Of a stretch of 64,000 bases of DNA, positions 8,401-63,400 are shown one piece after another. The notes below the pieces were generated by a model. It had not been told where the DNA came from, searched no databases, and saw nothing but the letters and a program-made list of their open reading frames with translations. Made by a program: the position numbers and the translations under genes. The first letter of the stretch is position 1; each line of letters starts with the position of its first letter. This DNA is from Saccoglossus kowalevskii (Eukaryota > Hemichordata > Enteropneusta > Harrimaniidae), in the NCBI RefSeq assembly GCF_000003605.2, contig NW_003111473.1:147735-211734 (forward strand), written 5' to 3'.

Positions 8401-10282
8401 ATGAGGAAAACTCAAGCAGATGGGTCATCTCATTAATATTTATGTTATGAGTGCAATGTACCAGACAGTTTCTTCACAAGCACTCATGCTGGGTTCCCAT
8501 GTTTTAGCACAATGGTGGAACCATATTGTACACAAATATGGTTGCATACTTGGTGGTTTGCTATGACTTACTGCTAATGAAATCCATTCCCATGCCCTTA
8601 CTTTTTTTTTTCTCCCCAAGGTCATATATTTATAATCATTTATAATTAAACAGTCCCTCTAAACTTGAACTTTAGTCATTTGATTGTACCTGATTACAAA
8701 GCCTAAAATACTAAAAATACATTAGAAATTGTGAAGGAAATATATGATTAAAGGACACTAAGGCAGTCTATGCTCTCGGAGGGCATCCCCTTTAGTCATG
8801 AGATGTATTTCTTTCGTGCAGCTTCACATAAAGACTCCCAGGCTTCTTTAACTACCATGTTTGGAAAACAGAATCAGCACTGCAGTAATAAATATCAATA
8901 ATTTTGATTATGTAATTGACAGCCATGGTTACTCCGTCATGATGGTTTTAATAGTGGACGATTTATTATTTTATTCCTAATAATTACACAAATACATGTT
9001 TTATTATCATCGTCACCATTTGGGTGAAACCCTGCAAACCATTTCAATTTGTCCCCAGTAAAAGTAAGTTTTTTCACAAATTTTGAATATCCTTCAGCGT
9101 TATCCAGTCAAAAACACAATAGCTACCTCAAAAATAATCAGTTTATACTCTTGGTATGCTGAAAACAATGTTAAAATACAACAACTTTAAAGACATAACT
9201 GGACAGGAAAAAAGCAGAAAAACTACTGGATAATTAAGTATATGACAAATTTAAGTGGACTGGCCAACCAACTGTTTGCTTGCGTGCGTATATGATTGTT
9301 TCACTGATATGCCATGGACTTCTAGTTTCTTTTCTGAATGGTTGATTTTTAAGATACTATAAAGCTTCCCAGAGTGAATAATGTGATTTCCACCAAGCAC
9401 ACCCTGGGAGCTGAGAACGTTACTGTTTGAATGATGACAGAATACAAATCATTGCCTTTTTAGTAAAACTGTGTTTGCCAATTCAGGTTAGGTTTTTAAG
9501 CCATGAATGTTCAGACATTTTGGCAAGGTCTTTATTATTTGTGGGTGTATTCTATTTTGACCTTCATAAGTAGTTGATATTAGCTTTAATTGTTCCTGGT
9601 GTTTGTAACCACCTGCAGTTGTTCAAAGATAAAAGTCCTGTATTTAATTTTCTCCTTGAAAACAAAGCCAGTGAATCTCACTGTATCTCCCCCTGGTAGC
9701 TGTCTTCAACAACAAGTTAATTATACCCAGCTGTTGGTAGATATAAATATAGTTACTTTACCCATGTCACTGTTGCAAGTTTAGTTTAACATGAACAAGT
9801 TGTGAATTCTATGAAAACATGTGTTCATTTTCATCAGTGATAGATCTATATGTATGAATCCTATCATTCTTTGTCATGCAGTGATCGTTTAATTTGCATA
9901 TTAAAAACTGCAGTTAATATAGATAACCATAATAATAGAGTAATTTATTTTTCAAATTTAGCAGGATGAGCATTAACAAAAAAAACATTATTTCAAAAAT
10001 TGTAATTGTACATTAAGATACAATCCTAATGACTGTAAATACAGCAAGTAGACCTGTGATCAGTATGTTCATTTACATGGGATTTCATTTTGGTGTGCAA
10101 ATATTTATACTGGGTTCAAATTAGTTGAGTTAAAATAACATGAGCGTTGGTCAGTATACACGTTATTATTGATCCAGTTACTACTGTGTATTGCTTTATT
10201 TTTGTGACAAATAGTCAGAGAAAAATTGTTAGCAGTGAAATTGTTATACTGTGATTCGGGTCCGGTCAATTGATTGCAATTA
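5411..10282. other. Noncoding stretch
   Basis: Only short chance ORFs are seen; the longest, 6,534-6,935 on the minus strand, shows no family motif. Simple runs such as (GTTT)n near 7,230 occur. The HIPK promoter and any untranslated first exon may lie here or farther right, but I cannot place them. Confidence 0.45.
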
Positions 10283-10912
10283 CAGTGACTTTTACCTAGG
10301 GTCCTAGTGAGACACCATGACTTTCATTTGGGTTCTAGCGCATCACAGTGACTTTTACCTAGGGTCCTAGTGAGACACCATGACTTTCATTTGGGTTCTA
10401 GCGCATCACAGTGACTTTTACCGAGGGTCCTAGTGAGACACCATGACTTTCATTTGGGTTCTAGCGCATCACAGTGACTTTTACCTAGGGTCCTAGTGAG
10501 ACACCATGACTTTCATTTGGGTTCTAGCGCATCACAGTGACTTTTACCTAGGGTCCTAGTGAGACACCATGACTTTCATTTGGGTTCTAGCGCATCACAG
10601 TGACTTTTACCTAGGGTCCTAGTGAGACACCATGACTTTCATTTGGGTTCTAGCGCATCACAGTGACTTTTACCTAGGGTCCTAGTGAGACACCATGACT
10701 TTCATTTGGGTTCTAGCGCATCACAGTGACTTTTACCTAGGGTCCTAGTGAGACACCATGACTTTCATTTGGGTTCTAGCGCATCACAGTGACTTTTACC
10801 TAGGGTCCTAGTGAGACACCATGACTTTCATTTGGGTTCTAGCGCATCACAGTGACTTTTACCTAGGGTCCTAGTGAGACACCATGACTTTCATTTGGGT
10901 TCTAGCGCATCA
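10283..10912 (+). repeat. 63-bp minisatellite, ten near-identical copies
   Basis: Units begin CAGTGACTTTTACC at 10,283, 10,346, 10,409 and every 63 bases to 10,850. Copies are almost identical; one visible change is CCGAGGG for CCTAGGG in the third. Each 63-mer is two related halves of about 31-32 bp (CAGTGACTTTTACCTAGGG and CCATGACTTTCATTTGGG), so this is a dimeric higher-order repeat. Confidence 0.97.
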
Positions 10913-11246
10913 CAGTGACTTTTACTTGGGTCCTAGCGAGTCACAGTGAGTTTCACTTGGGTCCTAGTAAACCACAGTGGCTTTCACTTGGGTCATAGTG
11001 AGTTTCACTTGGGTCCGAGTAAGCTACAGTGGCTTTCACTTGGGTCATAGTGAGTTACAGTGACTTTCACTGGGGTCCTAGGAAGTCACAGTGACTTTCA
11101 CTGGGGTCCTAAGAAATCACACTGACTTTCACTGGGGTCCTAAGAAGTCACAGTAACTTTCACTGGGGTCCTAGGAAATTACAATGATTTTCACTGGGGT
11201 CCTAGGGAGTCGCAGTGATTTTCACTGTGGTCCTAGGAAGTCGCAA
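10913..11246 (+). repeat. 31-bp monomer array beside the 63-bp array
   Basis: About ten or eleven diverged copies of a monomer of about 31 bp, CACAGTGACTTTCACTGGGG plus TCCTAGGAAGT. It continues directly from the 63-bp array and is the parental monomer form of its halves. Divergence rises compared with the homogeneous dimers. Confidence 0.9.
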
Positions 11247-18533: not shown

Positions 18534-19518
18534 AGCTCCGCTGTCGACTTTGTCGAGCGGAGCTTATCATATGAGTGATTGTTCGTCGTCGTCCGTGTCA
18601 ATGTTTTACTTTTTCGACTTCTTCTTGAAAGCTACAAGCCTAAATGCTTTGATACTTGGTGTATATGTACCTTGGGTAGACATCTCTTAGGTTTGTTCAT
18701 TTCATGTTGATATCTTTAATTCTCTAATTTTGGTGAATATTTTTGTCATTTTTGGTAAAAACTGATATTTTCGACTTCTTGTTAAAAACCGCAAGTGCAA
18801 TTGCTTTGATATTACATATATAGGTACTANNNNNNNNNNNNNNNNNNNNNNNNNNNNNNNNNNNNNNNNNNNNNNNNNNAAAAGTGATATTTTCGACTTC
18901 TTGTTAAAAACCGCAAGTCCGATTGCTTTGATATTACATATATAGGTACTACATGTGGACCTCTCTCAGATTTGTTCATTTTGTGATGATATCTTCAATT
19001 CTCTAATTTTGGTGAATATTTTTGTAATTTTTGGTAAAAAGTGATATTTTCGACTTCTTGTTGAAAACTGTAAGTCTGATTGCTTTGATATTACATATAT
19101 AGGTACTACATGTGGACCTCTCTCAGATTTGTTCGTTTTGTGATGATATCTTCAATTCTCTAATTAATTTGTTTTGGTGAATATTTTTGTAATTTTTGGT
19201 AAAAAGTGATATTTTCGACTTCTTGTTGAAAACTGTAAGTCCGATTGCTTTGATATTACATATATAGGTACTACATGTGGACCTCTCTCAGATTTGTTCG
19301 TTTTGTGATGATATCTTCAATTCTCTAATTAATTTATTTTGGTGAATATTTTTGTAATTTTTGGTAAAAAGTGATATTTTCGACTTCTTGTTAAAAACTG
19401 TAAGTCCGATTGCTTTGATACTATTCATATTGTTCATTTTCTAATGATGTCTTCAGTTCATTAATTGAAATGTGCAATGCTAACAGCGGAGCTATCTCAG
19501 CCGATAGGCTGCTTGTTT
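18534..19518 (+). mobile_element. AGCTCCGCT hairpin element, copy A (expanded)
   Basis: A non-coding repeated element. The 5' end is a hairpin: AGCTCCGCTGTCGAC, TTT loop, GTCGAGCGGAGCT. The 3' end has AGCGGAGCT followed by a small hairpin (CAGCC GATA GGCTG) and CTTGTTT. The interior is a tandem array of an AT-rich unit starting GTGATATTTTCGACTTC; starts at 18,884, 19,041, 19,206 and 19,371 give periods of 157, 165 and 165 bp. Copies B and C have fewer units. There is no coding capacity, so it is non-autonomous. The superfamily is unknown. Confidence 0.8.
18830..18879. other. Assembly gap of 50 N
   Basis: Exactly 50 N lie inside the tandem interior of the element, so the length is probably nominal and the true number of units is unknown. 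Confidence 0.98.
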
Positions 19519-41867
<22,349 letters not shown>

Positions 41868-44800: not shown

Positions 44801-45990
44801 ACTTCATTTGTTTCGTGAGACTGTGTAGCATTTACCAACACTCATCTGTTGACTCATGTTGAAAAGTTAAATATCCCAGCGAATGTTTCAAATACCGAAT
44901 ATAATTCATAAACTTGGACATCAGTTTATATGCTATCTGAAACCTCATTTTTCGGTCTAATTTGGTTTCACATGTTCTAACAGTATATTCAATCTTGTGA
45001 TTTTCGGCATGGCAACAAACATATATTAAACTTGCCTATTAAATCACACAGGCAATAAATAGAACTGTTTGTTTGGTATATTGTGCTTTGTTTTATCAAA
45101 TCCAAGCAGGTGATCATGTCTGTCCTCAGTCACACATTTTAGGGACCAACATTAGCAATTCTTCACAACCTAGTTCAATGAACCTATGCAATGTTTCATG
45201 CTGCTTGAATTCTCCACCAAATTGGATGCAGTCCATTTTCGGTAATCTAATCACTCTCCTGATTGGTCAATTGCTGGACACTTGTATCCAATCAAATTAT
45301 ACTTTACTGCTGGTGATAGAACTAGAAATCAAAATGATGTTTCCAGTTGTATTGTAACTGGAGCTTAGACATAGTCTGCACTTAGAAGTGGCGAAGGTGT
45401 TCTTTTATTAGAAATACAAAGTGAACAACCATTTACAAATATTCCATTTTGAGAATGGTGACTGGCAAATAGACTTTAGTGGACAGACTTTGTCTTCCAT
45501 TTAAGTCAAGGTTGTCACACCATTTCGTAACATTTTTTATCAGTTCCACTGCCTTTGAATGTGTTGTATTTTATCTTATGTACATTTCAATTGTCACTCC
45601 AACATTCTCTGTCCATTTAAACATTATTCAATTGTTGCCTCATGTAACATGCTAATCAGGGTGTTGTATTGATTTCATTGTTATCATCTAAACTGCCAAA
45701 TTTTCTAAATTTGTCTAGCTTTATTTAGCAGGGGAATATATTCAAATAAAAATATTGTAAATTCTCTGATGAATAATGTACTGAGCATGTGCATTCTGGA
45801 TAAACCGAGTACAACATTATTCATATTATTCACGTCTTGTGCCACAAATCAATCTCATTTTATAGGCATTTTAGTGAATTGCAAATACTGCAATTTTCAT
45901 TTTCTTCACTCATTCTAGTTCTCATGTTGACTTTGTCTAAAAACATGCAATGATTTTTGTGCTCATCAGTAACATTAAACAGATGGTTCA
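41868..45990 (+). other. HIPK 3' UTR and downstream flank
   Basis: AT-rich with no coding exon. Several AATAAA hexamers occur (for example near 43,126 and at 45,054-45,059), so the transcript end is not determined. Vertebrate HIPK2 has a multi-kilobase 3' UTR, so a long one is plausible. Confidence 0.5.
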
Positions 45991-45992
45991 CA

Positions 45993-46785
45993 ATAGGTCG
46001 CTCAAGTCAATATTTACCCTTTTCGCAATTGGTAGCTCAAGTCAATATTTACCTGTCTCACAATTGGTAGCTCAAGTCAATATTTACCTGTCTCACAATT
46101 GTAGCTCAAGTCAATATTTACCTGTCTCACAATTTATAGCTCAGGTCAATATTTACCTGTCTCACAATTGGGAGCTCAAGTCAATATTTACCTGTCTCAC
46201 AATTGGTAGCTCAAGTCAATATTTACCTGTCTCACAATTGATAGCTCAAGTCAATATTTACCTGTCTCACAATTGGTAGCTCAAGTCAATATTTACCTGT
46301 CTCACAATTGGTAGCTCAAGTCAATAGTTACCTGTCTCACAATTTATAGCTCAGGTCAATATTTACCTGTCTCACAATTGGGAGCTCAAGTCAATATTTA
46401 CCTGTCTCACAATTGGTAGCTCAAGTCAATATTTACCTGTCTCACAATTGGTAGCTCAAGTCAATATTTACCTGTCTCACAATTGATAGCTCAAGTCAAT
46501 ATTTACCTGTCTCACAATTGGTAGCTCAAGTCAATATTTACCCTTCTCACAATAGGTAGCTCAAGTCAATATTTACCTGTCTCACAATTTATAGCTCAGG
46601 TCAATATTTACCTGTCTCACAATTGGTAGCTCAAGTCAATATTTACCTGTCTCACAATTGGTAGCTCAGGTCATTATTTACATGTCTCACAATTGGTAGC
46701 TCAAGTCAATATTTACCTGTCTCACAATTGGTAGCTCAGGTCAATATTTACCTGTCTCGCAATAGGAAGCTCTGGTTCACATTTT
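45993..46785 (+). repeat. 35-bp minisatellite, about 22 copies
   Basis: Unit AGCTCAAGTCAATATTTACC TGTCTCACAATTGGT. The variable junction before AGCTC (GGT, GAT, GGG, TAT) and the AGGTC variant recur every six to seven units; TATAGCTCAGG occurs near 46,135, 46,343 and 46,588. One unit is 34 bp. Open frames here are artefacts. Confidence 0.96.
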
Positions 46786-50549: not shown

Positions 50550-51270
50550 TGTGCATTAAAAAGCCCAAATTGACACACTTATAGCATGCATTAAGAGCCC
50601 AGAATGCCACACTTGGAGCATGCATTCAAAAACCCAGAATGCCACACTTACAGCATGCATTCAAAAGCCCACAATGCCACACTTACAGCATGTATTCAAA
50701 AGCCCAGAATGCCACACTTTTAGCATGCATTCAAAAGCCCAGAATGCCACACTTTTAGCATGCATTCAAAAGCCCAGAATGCCACACTTTTTAGCATGCA
50801 TTCAAAAGCCCAGAATGCCATACTTTTTAGCATGCATTCAAAAGCCCAGAATGCCACACATTTAGCATGCATTCAAAAGCCCAGAATGCCACACATTTAG
50901 CATGCATTCAAAAGCCCAGAATGCCACACATTTAGCATGCATTCAAAAGCCCAGAATGCCACACATTTAGCATGCATTCAAAGGCCCAGAATGCCATACT
51001 TTTAGCATGCATTCAAAAGCCCAGAATGCCACACATTTAGCATGCATTCAAAAGCCCAGAATGCCACTTTTAGCATGCATTCAAAAGCCCAGAATGCCAC
51101 TTTTAGCATGCATTCAAAAGCCCAGAATGCCACTTTTAGCATGCATTCAAAAGCCCAGAATGCCACTTTTAGCATGCATTCAAAAGCCCAGAATGCCACT
51201 TTTAGCATGCATTCAAAAGCCCAGAATGCCACTTTTAGCATGCATTCAAAAGCCCAGAATGCCAAACATT
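50550..51270 (+). repeat. 33-36 bp minisatellite, about 21 copies
   Basis: Unit AGCATGCATTCAAAAGCCCA GAATGCCACACTTTT. The left part has 34-37 bp units; the right part (from about 51,037) has seven identical 33-bp units lacking ACA. Because 33 is a multiple of three, the right part is stop-free in several frames on both strands (11-residue repeats such as MHSKAQNATFS), which is not evidence of a gene. Confidence 0.96.
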
Positions 51271-54609: not shown

Positions 54610-57600
54610 CTATTGATTATGTGGTGCTGCTCTTTGCAATCCCAAACTAGCTAAAGCCTCAGTTCTGTCACGAATCCCAGTGAAGGGTTCCAGGTTCATC
54701 CTAGCAGCTTGTGCATTGCTATTCCCCTGAATGTAGTTCATAATGTCATTGTTTGGGCGTCTGGATGAGGATACTTTAATTAATGAGGGCATACTATTGC
54801 TTACTCTGGGACAGTTCTGCTTCTCAAGCAACTGTGTGAGATGAGGTGAGACTTCTGCTGGAGAAATGCGTGTCTGTGATGCACTGGCAGGATGATTGTA
54901 CAGCTGGGAGTTTGGAGAAGATTCAACCGAAGATTGACTTGATCTTATTTGTGAATGTCTATTTATTTGAGGTGGTGCTCTCAAATCAGAAGCAGTTCCC
55001 TGGTTGTAAACATTTCTTATATTGTCTTTGTTTCCAGGAAGGATAGGGGCTCCTTGCTGCATTGCTGAAGCAACTGCTTGGTAAGTGGTTGCAATCATCG
55101 GTGCAGAATGGGAACGTGGTTGTGAGATTTGTTCTGAAACTCCTCGTCCTGAAGTAGAGACTGTACTTTGATGAGATGACCCTGTTTTGGAAACAGGTGA
55201 CGATAATACTGATGTTAGGTCCCGAGAGGAATGCAAAGAAGATGTTGATACAGCACTGCTATTTACAGGTTTAGTAGAATTAATGCTGTTCCCATGACCG
55301 GAGGTAGAATAAACTTGCATTAATGAATCCATCTGAGAAGATGCATAAGCTGAATCAGAAGAGTTTGCAGTGGATGTAATCCCTTGACTGGAAGGCAAAT
55401 GTTCTGATGTACCATGTCTATCAGGAGAAATGCCTCTTCTAGGCCTCCCTCTATTCCTCTTGTCAATAACATTTGAAAAAGGTTCTAGAGTTTGTCCTCT
55501 TAACCTAGATACAAAGTAAGATGATTGCATATCCCTGGGATGCATAATGTGCCCAGGATATGATGGCTGGGCATTGCTCCTTGGAGGCAGTGAGCTGCTG
55601 GAACTATCAATTCTTCTTTGAGGAGAACCATCTTGAGAATTCAGTTTTCTGATTATGCCGTCATTTTCAACCCAAATATGTTGCTCATTTGGAGAAACTG
55701 TCCAAGACTTTCCTATAACAAGACCAGCCACACCTTCTTTTGAATCAATACCACCATAAGATAAGTCATTAAAAAAACCAGCAGCCTCTGGAGATATTTT
55801 TCTCTTCTTCATTGGGACTGTGAGATCTACTGGTCCTGTTCCTTCCTCAGATTCCATCAACTTTTTCTTCTCCCTTACTGGAGTGGTTGTATTATTTTCA
55901 ATTTTTGTCATCAATTTCTCCGGAATAAGCTCTGGAATGGAATCCCTTGAGGAACTCAAACTGTTTTTTGTAACTTTCACAATCTCAGGACTTGATCGAG
56001 TTAAGTGAGGAGCCTTTTCATCCTTTTCTACAGTACGTGCAGTGGAACTTGTGTATTGAGATTCATTGGAATTTGCAACACGATGACTCGACACAGAACC
56101 TCCTCTAACACTACTCTTGTTCATTGATGATGTTGGTGGTAGTGCTGGTAAATCTGCTTTACTTGATGCTTCCTCTGCCTTTAAAATTGTAGCAGCAACA
56201 TGTAAAGGAAAGTGTGAGAGTAGAGACAGCTTATGTGGATCAGTTATAGTGTGAAGTGGTTTATCTGGTGTTGCCATAACACTTCTTGTTGTACTGTCAG
56301 ACATAGGAGTTGCACTTCGACTGGAGCTGCCACAGGACGATCTTCTCTGTCTGTTCAGTTTTTTGTGTTCTACTTGCAAGTGCATTTTCATCCAAGCTCT
56401 CTTGTTGCATACAAAATCACAACGTCCAATAAGACATCGTAGCATAGAAATATTCTCTTCCATGTCTTCACTGTACATCTGTAGTCGCACACACCCTGGC
56501 AGTGGCAGTGATTCATCTTCCTCACATAATTCTCTAAACCGAGCTTCTACAGCAATTTGATCATTTGTAGAAATGGTGTGGGCAGATGCAATAAGCTCTC
56601 CACATGGAGGTGCCATGTAACTATCACTAGCCAAATTGCCAACAGATGCATGACCAACATCATGCTGTGGGTCTCTCTGAAGCGGTTCTAGCTGAGGCAT
56701 TTCAGCATCTTCAATAATCAAGTCCTTATGAGTAGAAGATGATTTAACTTCAAAACTGCTTCTACTATCTGGTTCCTGTACATCTGATGAAGAGTGTGTA
56801 AGACTTGCATCAGTGTTATTGGTAGTACTATCTTTCTCAGCCTTCTTTAAAGAAGAAGTAATACTTCTGGTCTGAGCTCTACCAATAGGTATGGAATCAG
56901 GACTTCCTTGTTTTTCACCGAAAGAATCATAAAGTTCATTAATATTTTCATCAAAATCCAAAGGCCTTGATAAATCTAAAACTTCTCCAGAGTCGGAATC
57001 GCCTGGCATAATATCAGTAGTCTCAGTCCCACTAGCTTCAGAGTCTGTTCGCTTTTCTGATAGCAATTGTCTAACCGTTTTAATTTTGTTGTTCTTCATC
57101 TTTTCAGCCAAGCGGAGAATCTTTGCATGGCGCCGTATACGATATGGTTCTTTGTAGGGGTCTTTTTCTTCTTCAGATAACGTTAACCACTTCCCTACTA
57201 TGTACCTTTTTAGAGATCCCTTGGGTTTGCCTTTAAATTTATGGCTAAGTCTCTTGGACATCCATTTATAGTATCTGTAGAAAGGGGAGCTTTTAGATGT
57301 TGCAGTGTTCAGTTTGAATGCTTCATGTGACATTGACAAAGAATCTGGACCAGGGTTAAAATCTGGGTCTAGATCCGGATCTAAGTCCAGGTCAAGATCA
57401 GGATCTGGACCATCTACAGCATCAGCGATAAACTTGGATGTTTTGAGTCTCTGTATGTTTGTTTTCTGACGTCTTACATATTTTCTACGTTTTTTAACCT
57501 GTCCTAATCCGTCTGGAATTGGCAGTCCTCTGGCAGTCAGTGCCTTTTCCAGGTATTGTTTCTGTGAGTCTAATCCTAGAGATTTCCATTTCTGACCAAC

Positions 57601-59063
57601 AAGTCTCATCACATCAGTGTGACTTCTTCCAGGGTTATCTTTTCTAATCTCCTGGTATACCTCTTTAGAGTAGATGTTGTAGCCGGTACTGTAAGCTCTT
57701 GCCACTTTCACCACCTTTGGCCTATGTGCAAGTGCAGCTTTAGCACTTGACATGCGAATGCCTGTTTTAAGTGAAGTTTTTCTAACCACCAACGGCCCAC
57801 CTTTTGCTCTAATATTATAATCTAATTGTTCCTGACGTGGTAAGGCATCCCATTTTTCATGGATCAGTTGATACACTTCCAAGCGACTCTTATCAGGATG
57901 CTGTTTGCTCACCTCTTTGTACCATTCCTTCATGAATACTGCATAGCCTAATGCTTTCTTCATTTTCTTTTTCTGTCGATCATTTCTAGTATCTCGAGCA
58001 GGGGCTTCAATCACTCCGTTTTCTTCAACTTCAACATCTTCATCCTCTTCATCATCATCCATACTAGCAATCGAAACAGCTGATCTTCCATACTTGCGTT
58101 GACGTTTTCTTATCATAGTTTCTCTTGCACGCCTGTGATATGCTTCTTGTTCAGTCTTATCCATTGTCTGCCACTTGGCATGGATGATTTTCATAAGCTC
58201 CTTTTTTACTTTATCAGGGTATTGTCTTTTCAATGTTTTATGCATGTCCCTTACAAGTATATTAAAACCCCTACGACAGTGTTTTCCCCTTTGATCACTT
58301 GCAGATTTCACTTTTGGCACCCGTATCTGAAGAATGGATGGCACTACAATATTAGTCCTTAGTTGATGGTGGTCTTTACTGTTTTTCTCGGATTCCTCTG
58401 CTGCTTTTTTGGAACTAGATTTGTTTAGAGTTTTTTGTATTTGTTCTCTGGCTTTAATGTGATAACTCTTTTGTTCTGCTGGATCCAGCTTTGTCCACTT
58501 CCCATGAATCATTCTTCTAACCTCACTCATGGTCTTGTTTGGAAACTTTTTTTTGAATTGAGCATACTTTTCTCTTAAAAAGAATGGATAACCATTTGTG
58601 AATTTTATTCTTCTTTCATGGCCATCATATTCCTGATGATTGGTTTCTGGTGATGTAGTTTCAGAATTGTTTTCATTCACATCAGGTTCAGCAACTTCCT
58701 CCACACTAGATTTTGGTTCCATTTCTTCAGTATGGGTTGAATCTACTTCAGGCGTATTAGCGTTAGTGTCAGTGTCTTCCTCTTCTTTCTCTTCCTCACC
58801 TTCAGTAGTAATTTCAGTCTTTTCATCACTACTTGAAGGAGGAACAGCATTCATGCATTCCTGTAGAGCTTCTTGGAGGAACGGTGAACCTTGACTCATC
58901 CACAGTTGAAGAGGCTTTTTGAAGAAATACCACTCATCAGCTGGGACTTGTTTATTGGACATTTTGGGTGCAGACTTGGAAGCAACTTTCCAGAACTCTC
59001 TGCCTTCTTCATATCTACATCGATAAAGAAAGATGTCTTCCTCAGGTATTTCAGTAGGACGAC
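54610..59063 (-). CDS. PBRM1: Polybromo terminal exon: BAH end, five HMG boxes, C2H2, AT-hook
   Basis: One open exon of 4,454 bp after acceptor TGATTTTGCAG; stop TAG at 54,612-54,610. It completes BAH (RPTEIPEEDIFLYRCRY ... DEWYFFKKPL). Then come a Glu/Asp-rich stretch (about 58,640-58,830) and HMG-box-like segments at about 58,445-58,605, 58,110-58,277, 57,795-57,960, 57,530-57,690 and 57,125-57,295. A Pro/Asp repeat (57,355-57,410) separates boxes 4 and 5. VLDLS lies at 56,968-56,982, a C-X4-C-X12-H-X4-H finger at 56,365-56,436, PVDLT at 55,819-55,833 and AT-hook NRGRPRRG at 55,432-55,455. The tail is Ser/Gln-rich and ends LGLQRAAPHNQ, with no match to the vertebrate C-terminus that I recognise. 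The first residues of the longer open frame (59,064-59,097) are intron. Confidence 0.93.
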
Positions 59064-62000
59064 CTGCAAAATCAGTTAGGTACACAGTAAGGAACAATAA
59101 TAATGATGATTAATTCAATGTACAAAGCTTATAGGGAATGTAAATGATTTAAAACAACAATGAATTTGGTACAAGTTGGGTTAATTACTGACCCAATCCA
59201 GAGGTTGTGCTAGATTTGATGTCAAAAATTTCATAAAAAAGTCTGTGACCGAGGCAAAAGTTTTCCCCACATAAAAGGCATCTATTTGTTTTGTCAACGA
59301 GTGAGAAATAGAAATTGTTTTGAACAATATTAGTGTAATGTGATTACAATATAATCAAAGAAAAAAAAGAACTCCTGTGTAATATTTTTCTGTCTAATTA
59401 ATTTCAGAGCATCTATAATTCAATTTAAATCCGATTTGATATCAGAAATGAACTAAATGTATTATTATGCATAGATTTAGGTCTATGTATTGTTCTGGGG
59501 AACGTACAAAGTTTTATTTTAATATGATAATTATTCCTAAACAAGCGGCCAGTTGGCTGAGATAGCTCCGCTGTTAGCAATGCACATTTCAATTAAAGAA
59601 CAGAAGATATCATTAGAAAATGAACAATATGTATAGTATCAAAGCAATGGGACTTGTTTTCAACAAGAATTCAAAAATATCACTTTTTACCAAAAATGAC
59701 AAAAATATTCACCAAAATTAGACAATTGAAGATATCATCATGAAATGAACAAATCTGAGAGAGGTCTACCCAAGGTACATATACACCAAGTATCAAATCA
59801 TTCAGGCTTGTAGTTTTTAAGAAGTCGAAAAAAAAAAAACATTGACACATACGACGGACAATCACTCATATGATAGGCTCCGCTCGACAAAGTCGACAGT
59901 GGAGCTAAAAAATTGGAAAGCTGAAGAGAAATTAGATTGTTGCATTGTCTTAGAGTATATATGCACCAAGGTTCATTAAAATAAGATAATGAGTAGTTGA
60001 GATATTGCTGGAAATGCTGAAAACTGCCTAATTATTATGAAAAAAAGGTAATTGATATGCACAGATGTTAATGCAAAACAATGTGCCAGACCATCTATGT
60101 ATTAAATTTCATTGAAATGTGATTAGAACCAAAAAATTATGAATCATTATGAAAATTAAGTAATTATCATGAACAGATTTTAATTGAAAACTGAGCAGGT
60201 CTGTGCATTGCCCTAGAGCATCTATGTACCAAGTTTCATTCATTGAAATGGGATAATTAGTACTTGACTTATTGATGTGAAAACCAAAAAAATGGCTAAT
60301 TATGCAAATTTTGTAATTAATATGCACAGATTTTAAACCAAAACCAATCTTGTCTGTGATAACTTTTAGAGCATCTATGTACCAAGTTGTATTAAAATAT
60401 GATAATTAGTACTTGAGATATCAGTGGAAAAGCCGAAAAATGTACTTATAACTATGCAAATTTGTAATTAATATGCATGGTTTTGTACCCAAAAATAATC
60501 AAATCTGTGCAGAGAACAGAGTCCAGAGCATCGATGTCCCAAGTTTCATCAAAATCCAATAAGAGGTCTTTCAGATATCACTGGAACAGTCATGGAACAG
60601 CTAAAAATTAACTTATCATGCAAATTAGGTAAATAATATGCATAGATTTCAACCAAAACCTAATCAAATCTGCGCATTAGCCTAAAGCATCAAGTTTCAT
60701 CAAAAACCAACATATGGTTCTTGGGATATCAGTGGAACAAACATACACATACAGACGCACTAAATGCAAAGACATTGTGTGCTTCGCATACGGGAGTCAA
60801 AAACTGATGATTTATTATCCTTTAGTACAGACTTGATCAATGATGTAAAGCAACTAGCTATATCCTGCTTTGATTAATGCTTCCTAAACCCAACACTTAC
60901 TGTGCATACTGTCAATGTAATGCACCCTAAAACCTAATATGCATACTGTCAGTGCATTTCTAACACTTGTTTTGATTCAACTTTTGGTATAATTGTCCCT
61001 TTAATTACATGCTTTTTATAATTGATATATTTGATACTGGTATCATGTATGGGTAAAACTTACTTCTTAAATAATCCGAGAAGTGGAGTACAGTACATTT
61101 ACCAATCACATCAGACATTTGACGGACAATAGTATGGCCCTGGAATACTTCTTTCTCATAGAACACTGTAGTAGCAAGATGTTTAGTGTCTTCTGGGTAG
61201 AGGAAGACAGGTCCCTGGAACCAAGGCACACCACTGAACAGATAGAGACAAAGTTAAATTTATGACTGCACCTACATCACTGACAAACAGGCAAAGTTTG
61301 CTGTAAGACGTGCATCATATAATTTTAGTATTTTGGCTTTATCCATGAATTTATTAATTTGAATACTATAGTTAATGAGTTGCATGTAGAATGAGCAAAC
61401 ATTCTGGTTAGCTAACGATGTGTTTAACATAATGTCTCTCAGTTTATAGTATAAATATATAGAATTTATTCACCATGACTATGGTGCACCACATTCCGAA
61501 TCAAGTTAGTATCAAATATCATAGCCGATATAAGGTAAAAGTCACCCTACCAGTAAAACTAATTTTATGCGGATTTATACACAATAAATTGTATGACTGT
61601 ACAATAACTCATGTTTATTTTGTCGAATGAAAACCATCAAATTACATTTCTGTCTTGTTTGGTTATAACCAGACTACACGTATTTGTAATGCTAGTTTAT
61701 ACTTGGCTTTAGTACTTAGATAATACCATGACATCACTCCAGCATTATATGTTGTGAACTTACTCTTTGTCTTCCCAGAGGCTGTCTATTTTAGCAATAC
61801 CAGGTTTATTCCGACCATCAGGATGCAAGTAGACGCAATCCCCTATTTTATAACACCCAGTTTCAGTCACGTACTGCTCATAGAATGGACTACCATCATC
61901 TTTTACTAATGGTTCATTGGTTCTCATATTAATTAGCGGTACAGTCTGTAAAATGAATACAACAAGTCATAGTATATTTGCATTTGACTGAACTAACATT

Positions 62001-63400
62001 TGAGGACACAGCACTATGTCTTGTCTATTAACAAAATCTGTTGAAGCATGGCTGATAAATTGTCGAGGACGCATAAAAAGAAAACGGACGAACGGACGGA
62101 CAGAGACCGAATTTTTGGACTTCATCCGAACAGGGACATGCACCTGTAAACCCAATATGCATAATCATGATACAAAGTTTCAATGAAATTTCCCTGTTCA
62201 TCTCCAAGAAGCGAAGAACATATTTATGTATCAGAAATTAGCATTAGCCATACTTGACCAAATTATAATGAGAAATGATTGCATATGCAAGTCATTGTAC
62301 ATTGTCTGTGTGTTAAGTTTGAATGTGATCAGTCAAAGCATGTATGAGAAATTACTCTGGACGATCTCAAATTAATACTCCCTGGGTACTAGTAAATCAC
62401 TTTAAGGATATATACATCATACCCACTATAGTACCAAACATAAAAGACATGTTTTCTTACCATATTACTATAGTCAACATCCAGCTCTGTCTCTGTCTCT
62501 GGCATTCGCTCTTGTTTCCGCACTTTGTCATGAGCTTTTTCTGCTTTTAAATCAGACTGAAGGTGAACATTGATATAATGCAATGCTGGAGAGTTCAAAA
62601 CTTGTCCCCATTCACACACCTGTTCACGAGATAATATGTAGTACTCCTGTAGCCTTATTGCAGTGTAATAAATCTGTAGAAAAGTCAAGATACATTGTGA
62701 GTATATTGTTACAAGTACAGTTACACTCTAGTTCATGAACCATACCATACATTCTGAAATGCTTCAAACTTTACTATCAGTTTATGGAACCTGGTCATTG
62801 GACATCATTTTACTTTTCTTGATAATCATATTATATCATGTATCTTGACTATCAACTATCATGAACGTGGTATGAATGGATAAACAATGCTTTGACAATG
62901 CCCCGTTGATGACAGGGCATTGACGTTGACATTGACGTTACAACAGGTGCCTAAATAAACTGATCATGAGAACCGATCATTGCAATACTGGTATCCCTCT
63001 ATCCCTTGAAAGATTCTTAGCGGCATTTGATGTGACTTGCATTCAACCATTGGAAATTTGCATATCAAAAGTATCACTATATGTGATGGGGGGGGGGGGG
63101 GTTGAAATTAAATTGTAAGCCAATGATTAAATGATTTATTGCGTTCTAGTGTACAACGATGATGGTCAGATGCAAATATTCACCATTTTAGTAATATTTT
63201 CTACTGTAAGCAAACTACGAATTAGCTAATTCCAGAATATAAGTGATTTGATGACACTTTACTTAATTACCTCTTGATAGTCTTTGGATAGACGTCTTAT
63301 TTTTTCAAATATTGCAAATAAATCTTTTTGCATCTGGTCTAATCGTTGATAACATCCAGTGTAAAGTTTATTTGACACTGTGCTGAAATCCATTACTAAC
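54610..63400 (-). CDS. PBRM1: Polybromo-1-like PBAF subunit, last five coding exons (5' part outside window)
   Basis: A subunit of a SWI/SNF (PBAF-type) remodeller that reads acetylated histones and targets the complex. Exons in reading order: 63400-63271, 62673-62461, 61945-61764, 61233-61064, 59063-54610; all phases agree. Order of parts: end of a bromodomain (MDFSTVSNKLYTGCYQRLDQ); a linker with SPALHYINVHL, like human SPALSYTTKHL; one BAH domain (YKIGDCVYLHPDG, WFQGPVFLYPEDTKH, VFYEKEVF, IGKCTVL, RPTEIPEEDIF) that follows human PBRM1 BAH2; an acidic stretch; five HMG-box-like segments; a C2H2 finger; an AT-hook; a Ser-rich tail. Human PBRM1 has two BAH domains and one HMG box, so the orthology of the front half is strong, while the back half is unlike the vertebrate protein. 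A diverged paralogue is possible. Vertebrate bromodomains 1-5 would lie beyond 64,000. Confidence 0.92.
59539..59906 (-). mobile_element. AGCTCCGCT hairpin element, copy C (short form)
   Basis: Minus orientation: 5' hairpin AGCTCCACTGTCGAC / GTCGAGCGGAGC at 59,906-59,878 and 3' end GCTAACAGCGGAGCTATCTC, then hairpin CAGCC AACT GGCCG and CTTGTTT at 59,539. Only one interior unit, about 370 bp in all, so it shows the basic form of the family. Confidence 0.82.
59935..60790. repeat. Degenerate tandem array of 110-165 bp units
   Basis: About six units, each with ATGTACCAAGTTTCATTAAA, a GAGATATCAGTGGA-type word and AATTAATATGCACAGATTTT. The last word lies near 60,058, 60,170, 60,322, 60,475 and 60,640. 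It ends with ACATACACATACAGACGCAC and a GTGTGCTTCGCATACGGGAG terminus. Confidence 0.8.
61064..61233 (-). CDS. PBRM1: Polybromo exon n-1: middle of BAH domain
   Basis: Acceptor TGTTCAG, donor GTAAGT. GVPWFQGPVFLYPEDTKHLA, TTVFYEKEVFQGH, SDVIGKCTVLHFSDYLR. A one-base overhang at each end keeps phase. Confidence 0.94.
61764..61945 (-). CDS. PBRM1: Polybromo exon n-2: start of BAH domain
   Basis: Acceptor TTTTACAG, donor GTAAGT. GSPFYEQYVTETGCYKIGDC, VYLHPDGRNKPGIAKIDSLW aligns with human CHYFEQLHYNDMWLKVGDCV, the start of BAH2. Confidence 0.92.
61946..62460. other. Polybromo intron between linker and BAH exons
   Basis: About 515 bp. It contains a repeat-like patch (62,080-62,215) with GGACGAACGGACGGAC and CAAAGTTTCAATGAAATTT. 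I find no BAH1-like reading in any frame. Confidence 0.7.
62461..62673 (-). CDS. PBRM1: Polybromo exon n-3: bromodomain end and linker
   Basis: Acceptor TTTTCTACAG, donor GTAAGA, 71 codons in phase 0. IYYTAIRLQEYYILSREQV ends the bromodomain; SPALHYINVHLQSDLKAEK is the block that in vertebrates comes just before BAH1. Here the next exon encodes a BAH2-like domain. Confidence 0.9.
62674..63270. other. Polybromo intron within the bromodomain
   Basis: Nearly 600 bp without coding signal; a pure G run of about 14 lies near 63,089-63,102. Confidence 0.75.
63271..63400 (-). CDS. PBRM1: Polybromo exon n-4: bromodomain C-terminal half
   Basis: Acceptor TTCATTGTAG, donor GTAATT. MDFSTVSNKLYTGCYQRLDQ, MQKDLFAIFEKIRRLSKDYQE corresponds to the ZA-end to helix C part of the last bromodomain. 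Confidence 0.88.

What the first reader, a model, noticed from the sequence alone, without database searches (positions are those of the whole stretch)
57125..58605. Polybromo relative with five HMG-box-like segments instead of one
Seen: five spaced segments with the HMG pattern. Box 1: FTNGYPFFLREKYAQFKKKF, IHGKW. Box 2: RRGFNILVRDMHKTLKRQYP, IHAKW. Box 3: ALGYAVFMKEWYKEVSKQHP, IHEKW. Box 4: STGYNIYSKEVYQEIRKDNP, VGQKW. Box 5: SSPFYRYYKWMSKRLSHKFK, IVGKW. Known: vertebrate PBRM1 carries one box ending in LVGTEW. Box 4 (LVGQKW) looks closest to it; boxes 1-3 share I-H-x-K-W and resemble one another more. Inference: tandem duplication built a multi-box DNA-binding platform on a PBAF subunit in this lineage, which would change how the remodeller grips linker DNA.
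Basis: partly seen in the sequence, partly recalled or inferred. Interest (0 to 1): 0.75.

Follow-up and report, generated by a model that had tools for sequence, protein, structure and literature searches.

The report
Second polybromo gene with HMG-box array
In what looks like an acorn worm, next to a normal copy of a chromatin-remodelling gene there is a second, strongly changed copy that has lost part of its histone-reading equipment and gained a row of four certain, probably five, DNA-gripping HMG boxes.

Summary
The five segments are real. They lie in one uninterrupted 4,454-base terminal exon on the minus strand (54610-59063). Boxes 1-4 pass Pfam's HMG_box cut-off; box 5 falls below it (19.2 bits against 25.4) but beats all 10,000 shuffles in each of three models. 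The gene is a polybromo relative, but not the genome's PBAF polybromo: a canonical copy, with two BAH domains, one HMG box and the C-terminal segment holding PBRM1's PBAF-anchoring helix, lies on another contig. The window gene is a divergent paralog (eight in-frame exons, 1,899 aa). It keeps bromodomains 5-6 and a BAH2-like domain. It has lost BAH1, the acetyl-lysine Asn of bromodomain 5 and the anchor segment, and has gained the box array (+52 net charge). Boxes 1-4 group together and, weakly, with polybromo's own box, so in-gene duplication is the best reading. Mitochondrial code points to a hemichordate like Saccoglossus. Most likely role: a multi-box DNA-bending chromatin protein working beside PBAF rather than inside it. 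Function, expression and spread were not testable: no animal collection was on hand, and the structure queue accepted no job.

The parts
63271..63400 (-). exon, middle of bromodomain 6
   Evidence: AG/GT splice sites, frame kept, aligns to human PBRM1 BD6
62461..62673 (-). exon, end of bromodomain 6 and linker; the BD6 intron falls at the same place as in the canonical gene
61764..61945 (-). exon, first part of the single (BAH2-like) BAH domain
   Evidence: Pfam BAH 6.7e-22 for the spliced protein; closer to the canonical gene's BAH2 exons than to its BAH1 exons
61064..61233 (-). exon, second part of the BAH domain
54610..59063 (-). terminal exon: end of BAH domain, five HMG boxes, long tail without Pfam matches, stop codon
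   Evidence: one open frame; tail scanned
58423..58608 (-). HMG box 1
   Evidence: Pfam 2.9e-9; bounds converted
58099..58284 (-). HMG box 2
   Evidence: Pfam 2.4e-7; bounds converted
57778..57963 (-). HMG box 3
   Evidence: Pfam 1.2e-5, just over cut-off; bounds converted
57526..57699 (-). HMG box 4
   Evidence: Pfam 6.4e-10; bounds converted
57133..57294 (-). HMG box 5 (probable, degenerate)
   Evidence: Pfam 0.0017, below cut-off; 0 of 10,000 shuffles reach it in each of three models; no HMG match in the PDB
56365..56436 (-). C-x4-C-x12-H-x4-H stretch that may be a remnant of the C2H2-like finger of the canonical polybromo
   Evidence: pattern read from the sequence; similarity not significant (115 of 1000 shuffles as good) and no Pfam match in the tail
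55438..55458 (-). AT-hook-like motif RNRGRPR
   Evidence: 0 of 2000 shuffles of the tail hold [RK].RGRP[RK], 29 of 2000 hold RGRP; patterns chosen after seeing it
55819..55833 (-). PVDLT, CtBP-binding-like motif (motif recalled)
   Evidence: 94 of 2000 shuffles also hold PxDL[ST]: weak

Best explanation
The window holds the 3' half of a second, divergent polybromo gene. SHOWN by sequence: this copy keeps bromodomains 5-6 and one BAH2-like domain. It has no BAH1, no acetyl-lysine Asn in bromodomain 5, and no C-terminal segment of the kind that contains the helix building human PBRM1 into PBAF. Its terminal exon carries four clear HMG boxes and one probable fifth, 88-135 residues apart, each more positively charged than the canonical box. 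INFERRED: the boxes arose mostly by duplication of polybromo's own box. The protein is a chromatin-bound DNA-bending factor. Its BAH domain touches histone tails, while four or five boxes and an AT-hook-like motif wedge into, bend and bridge neighbouring stretches of linker or nucleosome-edge DNA, in the way multi-box UBF organises DNA. It would act beside PBAF, as Hmo1 acts beside RSC, rather than as its built-in subunit.
For: Polybromo identity: E 6.6e-70 to PBRM1. Eight exons joined by seven AG/GT introns give one 1,899-aa frame. A canonical gene on C3574 matches human PBRM1 at 58-67% in six of its seven matched stretches and 43% in the seventh. It has BAH1 and BAH2, one box split by an intron and the C-terminal segment. 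The window BAH matches the canonical BAH2 exons at 46, 48 and 36% (E 5.3e-9, 2.9e-7, 1.9e-4) and the BAH1 exons at 38 and 37% (E 0.002, 0.02). BAH1 is missing and FNNACTYN has become FNNTIRVY (human letters confirmed). The anchor segment is absent from the protein (best score reached by 227 of 1000 shuffles) and from the 114 kb examined, N runs aside (best tblastn E 0.61). Boxes. Box charge +13, +14, +7, +6, +14 against +3 canonical and +1 human. Boxes 1-4 group at 93/86, and with polybromo boxes at 72/89. Only one strong place for the array in the genome. Passages read: the CTD helix, residues 1514-1524, is the part of PBRM1 observed in the PBAF map (PMC9741621); BAH2 binds H3/H4 tails (PMC10425938); Hmo1 helps RSC act on partly unwrapped nucleosomes (PMC7308085).
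Against: No expression, binding or interaction data, and no structure prediction. Box 5 is below Pfam's cut-off. phmmer aligned the window BAH to both human BAH domains with similar strength (124.0 bits for BD6 plus BAH1, 113.6 for BAH2), so 'BAH2' rests. Box trees have no starred branch, and none of the PDB hits of the whole array is polybromo (8 hits). Assembly gaps could hide further exons upstream. PBAF entry by another contact cannot be excluded. UBF-like and Hmo1-like behaviour is analogy only.
Confidence: 0.6

Rival explanations
1. The product is an alternative PBAF subunit: it replaces canonical polybromo in some PBAF complexes and gives them a stronger grip on exiting or linker DNA.
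For: Polybromo ancestry. In the PBAF structure the PBRM1 HMG domain is one candidate for unassigned density on extranucleosomal DNA (PMC9741621 passage).
Against: The C-terminal segment with the anchoring helix is missing from the protein and from the 114 kb examined, N runs aside, while the canonical gene keeps it.
Confidence: 0.22
2. The architecture is old and general: many invertebrates have a second polybromo with several HMG boxes, and this is one ordinary member.
For: Long branches of the boxes and 36-48% identity to the canonical BAH2 exons suggest age. No animal collection could be searched here.
Against: The copy shares more residues with this genome's canonical gene than with human (23 against 9 in BD5-BD6, p 0.02; 14 against 11 in BAH2, p 0.69), a weak hint of a younger duplication, from three unrooted sequences. 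In six literature searches no listed title or abstract start mentions such a polybromo.
Confidence: 0.35
3. The array was assembled by capture of HMG boxes from other genes rather than by duplication of polybromo's own box.
For: Single scores favour other boxes for some copies: box 1 with HMG20B 101 against 83 for the own polybromo box, box 4 with yeast Abf2 box 2 86 against 85. In the PDB, box 4 ranks Abf2 first (E 1.7e-10) and polybromo 29th (E 0.0099). Box 5 is unplaced.
Against: Boxes 1-4 group together at 93/86 and with the polybromo boxes at 72/89.
Confidence: 0.25
4. A decaying duplicate (pseudogene).
For: Lost domains and a degenerate box 5.
Against: A terminal exon of about 1,484 codons without an early stop and seven AG/GT introns that keep frame.
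Confidence: 0.04

Closest known systems
Polybromo-1 (PBRM1/BAF180), PBAF subunit
   Same: Bromodomain 5-6 region, BAH2, HMG box after the BAH, same intron positions in BD6 and before RPTEI
   Different: No BAH1, no BD5 Asn, no C-terminal segment with the anchor helix, four or five HMG boxes instead of one, all in one terminal exon
Yeast Rsc1/Rsc2 (with the separate HMG protein Hmo1)
   Same: BAH domain plus an AT-hook-like motif; the HMG function that yeast supplies in trans is here in the same chain (PMC7308085 passages)
   Different: Rsc1/2 have no HMG box; a CT2 region is needed for their assembly into RSC; an equivalent was not looked for here beyond the PBRM1 C-terminal segment
UBF/UBTF, multi-HMG-box factor of ribosomal genes
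   Same: Row of HMG boxes in one chain; the abstract start in a search listing calls UBF a multi-HMGB-box protein able to form nucleosome-like complexes (PMC4133168)

Membership tests
Polybromo (PBRM1/SMARCH) family by descent | Homologous bromodomain-BAH region | tested here: met
   E 6.6e-70 over BD6-BAH; shared intron positions
Polybromo (PBRM1/SMARCH) family by descent | Six bromodomains | tested here: inconclusive
   Only BD5 and BD6 found; large N gap further upstream
Polybromo (PBRM1/SMARCH) family by descent | Two BAH domains | tested here: not met
   No counterpart of BAH1 between BD6 and the single BAH
Polybromo (PBRM1/SMARCH) family by descent | One HMG box | tested here: not met
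   Four boxes over cut-off and a probable fifth
PBAF complex subunit | C-terminal helix (human 1514-1524) that inserts into the PBAF base | tested here: not met
   Absent from protein and from the 114 kb examined, N runs aside; present in the canonical gene; role from PMC9741621; residues placed by chain numbering
PBAF complex subunit | Co-purification with ARID2, BRD7, PHF10 | not testable with these tools
   needs biochemistry
HMG-box domain, boxes 1-4 | Score above the curated Pfam cut-off | tested here: met
   37.7, 31.5, 26.1, 39.8 bits against 25.4
HMG-box domain, box 5 | Score above the curated Pfam cut-off | tested here: not met
   19.2 bits against 25.4; 0 of 10,000 shuffles reach it in each of three models
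HMG-box domain | L-shaped three-helix fold | not tested
   structure jobs not accepted, machine busy in all 15 tries
Acetyl-lysine-reading bromodomain (BD5) | Anchoring Asn in the BC loop (position recalled) | tested here: not met
   FNNACTYN in human, FNNTIRVY here; importance of the Asn in PBRM1 bromodomains from PMC10164552 passage

The most novel reading that the evidence does not exclude
A histone-reading remodeller subunit was duplicated, and the copy became a remodeller-independent architectural DNA protein. It dropped acetyl-lysine reading and the PBAF docking segment, and multiplied its single HMG box into an array of five: a UBF-like nucleoprotein organiser built from a polybromo, restricted to hemichordates or a close set of marine invertebrates.
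Probability: 0.35. Interest if true: 0.62.

Novelty: new variant of a known kind. Interest (0 to 1): 0.45.

Why it matters
What PBRM1's single HMG box does in PBAF is unclear; one paper read in passages calls it a putative DNA-binding domain whose role in recruitment is still to be clarified (PMC10425938). A natural paralog in which that box was multiplied while a key acetyl-lysine residue and the complex-docking segment were lost separates these jobs, and gives a direct way to test what HMG boxes contribute beside a SWI/SNF remodeller. It also warns that a search by polybromo domains alone would mislabel this gene as a PBAF subunit.

Tried and rejected
Rejected: that the window gene is the genome's only polybromo; that box 4 is clearly the ancestral box; a conserved C2H2 finger in the tail (no Pfam match, 115 of 1000 shuffles as good); CtBP-binding motifs as more than a weak pattern. 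Tried without result: relatives in genome contigs (36 pattern matches, none confirmed); further bromodomains upstream (the stretch L038 is all N); canonical bromodomains 1-4 with a human probe (five places, one of them the window gene's BD5, the other four on other contigs and not assigned to polybromo); structure prediction of box 5. Not repeated: a genome search with the canonical box alone and a genome search for further copies of the C-terminal segment (not completed).

The tree used few other HMG boxes. Box 5 and one UBF box (UBF2) were in the first tree and left out of the second because of their very long branches. With them in, boxes 1-4 still grouped (88/90) but the polybromo boxes were not resolved beside them. 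In neither tree is any branch starred. On re-checking I raised the box-capture rival from 0.20 to 0.25, because the PDB ranking of box 4 had been left out.
Full report
WHAT WAS CHECKED. They lie within a 4,454-base terminal exon that runs from 59063 to a stop at 54610. Against Pfam HMG_box each segment alone gives E 2.9e-9, 2.4e-7, 1.2e-5, 6.4e-10 and 0.0017; the first four exceed the curated cut-off of 25.4 bits and the fifth does not. The fifth finds no HMG protein in the PDB. Yet it scores 23.0, 15.9 and 18.1 bits with three HMG models built here without it, and 0 of 10,000 shuffles of its own letters reach any of these (best shuffles 12.7, 15.0 and 11.9). The fit is four certain boxes and one probable, degenerate box. 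Spacing between the matched stretches is 108, 107, 88 and 135 residues.

THE GENE. Upstream exons in and beyond the window extend it to a 1,899-residue open frame in eight exons, joined by seven AG/GT introns. Three of these exons, for bromodomain 5 and the start of bromodomain 6, lie outside the window at continued coordinates 73022-73192, 68952-69119 and 66244-66455. The true 5' end is not known. The product matches PBRM1 at E 6.6e-70 over bromodomain 6 and BAH. No further bromodomain was found in the sequenced DNA upstream, but a large N gap begins 32 kb further on, so bromodomains 1-4 are not excluded.

NOT THE ONLY POLYBROMO. The same genome (572 Mb, 4,830 contigs) has a canonical polybromo on contig C3574, 58-67% identical to human in six of seven matched stretches and 43% in the seventh. 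It has both BAH domains, one HMG box split by an intron, a C2H2-like finger (zinc-finger matches below Pfam's cut-offs) and the human-like C-terminal segment. An 18.5-kb N gap lies just upstream of its first matched exon and may hide bromodomains 1-4; a human probe for bromodomains 1-5 found no clear canonical exons elsewhere. The window gene is therefore a paralog. The intron inside BD6 and the acceptor before RPTEI are at the same places in both genes (read), so the copy arose at DNA level. The introns that split the canonical 3' region are absent from the window gene, whose whole array is one exon.

WHAT THE COPY LOST AND GAINED. Lost: BAH1. The single BAH matches the canonical BAH2 exons at 46, 48 and 36% (E 5.3e-9, 2.9e-7, 1.9e-4) and the BAH1 exons at 38 and 37% (E 0.002 and 0.02). 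The alignment shows no BAH1 counterpart. Against this, phmmer aligned the window BAH to both human BAH domains with similar strength; tblastn with human favoured BAH2 (60.1 against 44.3 bits for the shared exon). Lost: the acetyl-lysine Asn of bromodomain 5 (FNNACTYN to FNNTIRVY; position recalled). In bromodomain 6 the equivalent Asn is Ser in both copies, so that change is not specific. Lost: the C-terminal segment. In the human PBAF structure the short helix at residues 1514-1524 is the part of PBRM1 placed in the complex, while its other domains were not observed (PMC9741621, passages). The canonical gene keeps this segment, aligned to human 1509-1594. The window protein has nothing like it (best score reached by 227 of 1000 shuffles), nor has the 114 kb examined, N runs aside (best tblastn E 0.61). 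Gained: the box array, net charges +13, +14, +7, +6 and +14 against +3 for the canonical box and +1 for human, and an AT-hook-like RNRGRPR (0 of 2000 shuffles for the core pattern, chosen afterwards). Each box keeps an aromatic residue at the start of helix 1, the wedge position in HMG boxes as I recall it, and the helix-2 Trp (read).

ORIGIN OF THE BOXES. Boxes 1-3 are most alike (104-119; 74-97 with box 4). In a tree without box 5, boxes 1-4 group at 93/86 and fall beside the polybromo boxes at 72/89; no branch is starred and the program warns of long branches. With box 5 the wider placement is unresolved, although boxes 1-4 still group at 88/90. Against this reading, box 1 scores higher with HMG20B (101) than with the own polybromo box (83), and box 4 equals yeast Abf2 (86 against 85). 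In the PDB box 4 ranks Abf2 first and polybromo 29th of the 60 rows shown, and none of the 8 hits of the whole array is polybromo. Duplication of polybromo's own box is the best reading but not a firm one. Only one strong place for the array was found in the genome; two other places match at E 0.78 and 3.4 (which scores only the best candidates).

WHICH ANIMAL. On the 17,037-base mitochondrial contig, ATA stands where the recalled COX1 probe has Ile or Val (5 and 2 of 7, never Met), and the one AAA stands for Lys. A paper states that ATA=Ile is shared by echinoderms and hemichordates, that AAA is Asn in echinoderms, and that AAA is Lys in Saccoglossus (PMC2697986, passages). This points to a hemichordate of the Saccoglossus kind; the species name was not verified.

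AGE. At sites where human and the canonical copy differ, the window gene sides with its genome's canonical copy 23 to 9 in BD5-BD6 (p 0.02) and 14 to 11 in BAH2 (p 0.69). Three unrooted sequences cannot settle the order of events; this is a weak hint that the duplication is younger than the split from vertebrates. No animal collection could be searched, so spread to other animals is open. One scan of prokaryote genomes confirmed no relative.

MECHANISM. Inferred: a chromatin-bound, multi-box DNA-bending protein. Human BAH2 binds H3 and H4 tails (PMC10425938, passages). The HMG domain of PBRM1 is reported to interact with nucleosomal DNA (PMC10164552, passage). Yeast RSC works with the separate HMG protein Hmo1 on partly unwrapped nucleosomes, and its authors speculate that the PBRM1 HMG domain has a similar job (PMC7308085, passages). 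Here the boxes are multiplied in cis while the known PBAF docking segment is lost. So I favour action beside PBAF over action as its subunit. Every functional step is untested.

NOVELTY. In six literature searches no listed title or abstract start mentions a polybromo with more than one HMG box. Of the papers listed I read only passages of those cited, and of PMC3307773 and PMC9170682, whose passages do not describe one. This covers open-licence papers only, so absence from print is not shown.

Noticed in passing
21124-22359 (+), probably on to 41867: Kinase gene on the opposite strand next to the polybromo copy; Pkinase E 2.2e-29 in 21124-22359. It looks like a HIPK (homeodomain-interacting protein kinase) by recall; the further exons are only read by eye.
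   Followed up: partly
36361-36831: Minisatellite, 20-base unit CTTTTCATCACCAGTTCCCT, 23.5 copies, open in all three plus-strand frames.
   Followed up: no
45988-46772 and 50552-51264: Two minisatellites with 35-base units, 22.5 and 20.7 copies; open frames across them need not be genes.
   Followed up: no
10282-11242 and 18880-19420: Further tandem arrays with units of 63, 31 and 165 bases, among others.
   Followed up: no
L023 (canonical polybromo, C3574): The canonical polybromo has a C2H2-like finger just after its HMG box (ECCWGDCDF..., Zap1-type finger E 6e-4, below cut-off), while human PBRM1 is described without one in the passages read.
   Followed up: partly
window gene and C3574, bromodomain 6: In both hemichordate copies the residue aligned with the Asn of human bromodomain 6 (RRMN) is Ser.
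   Followed up: no
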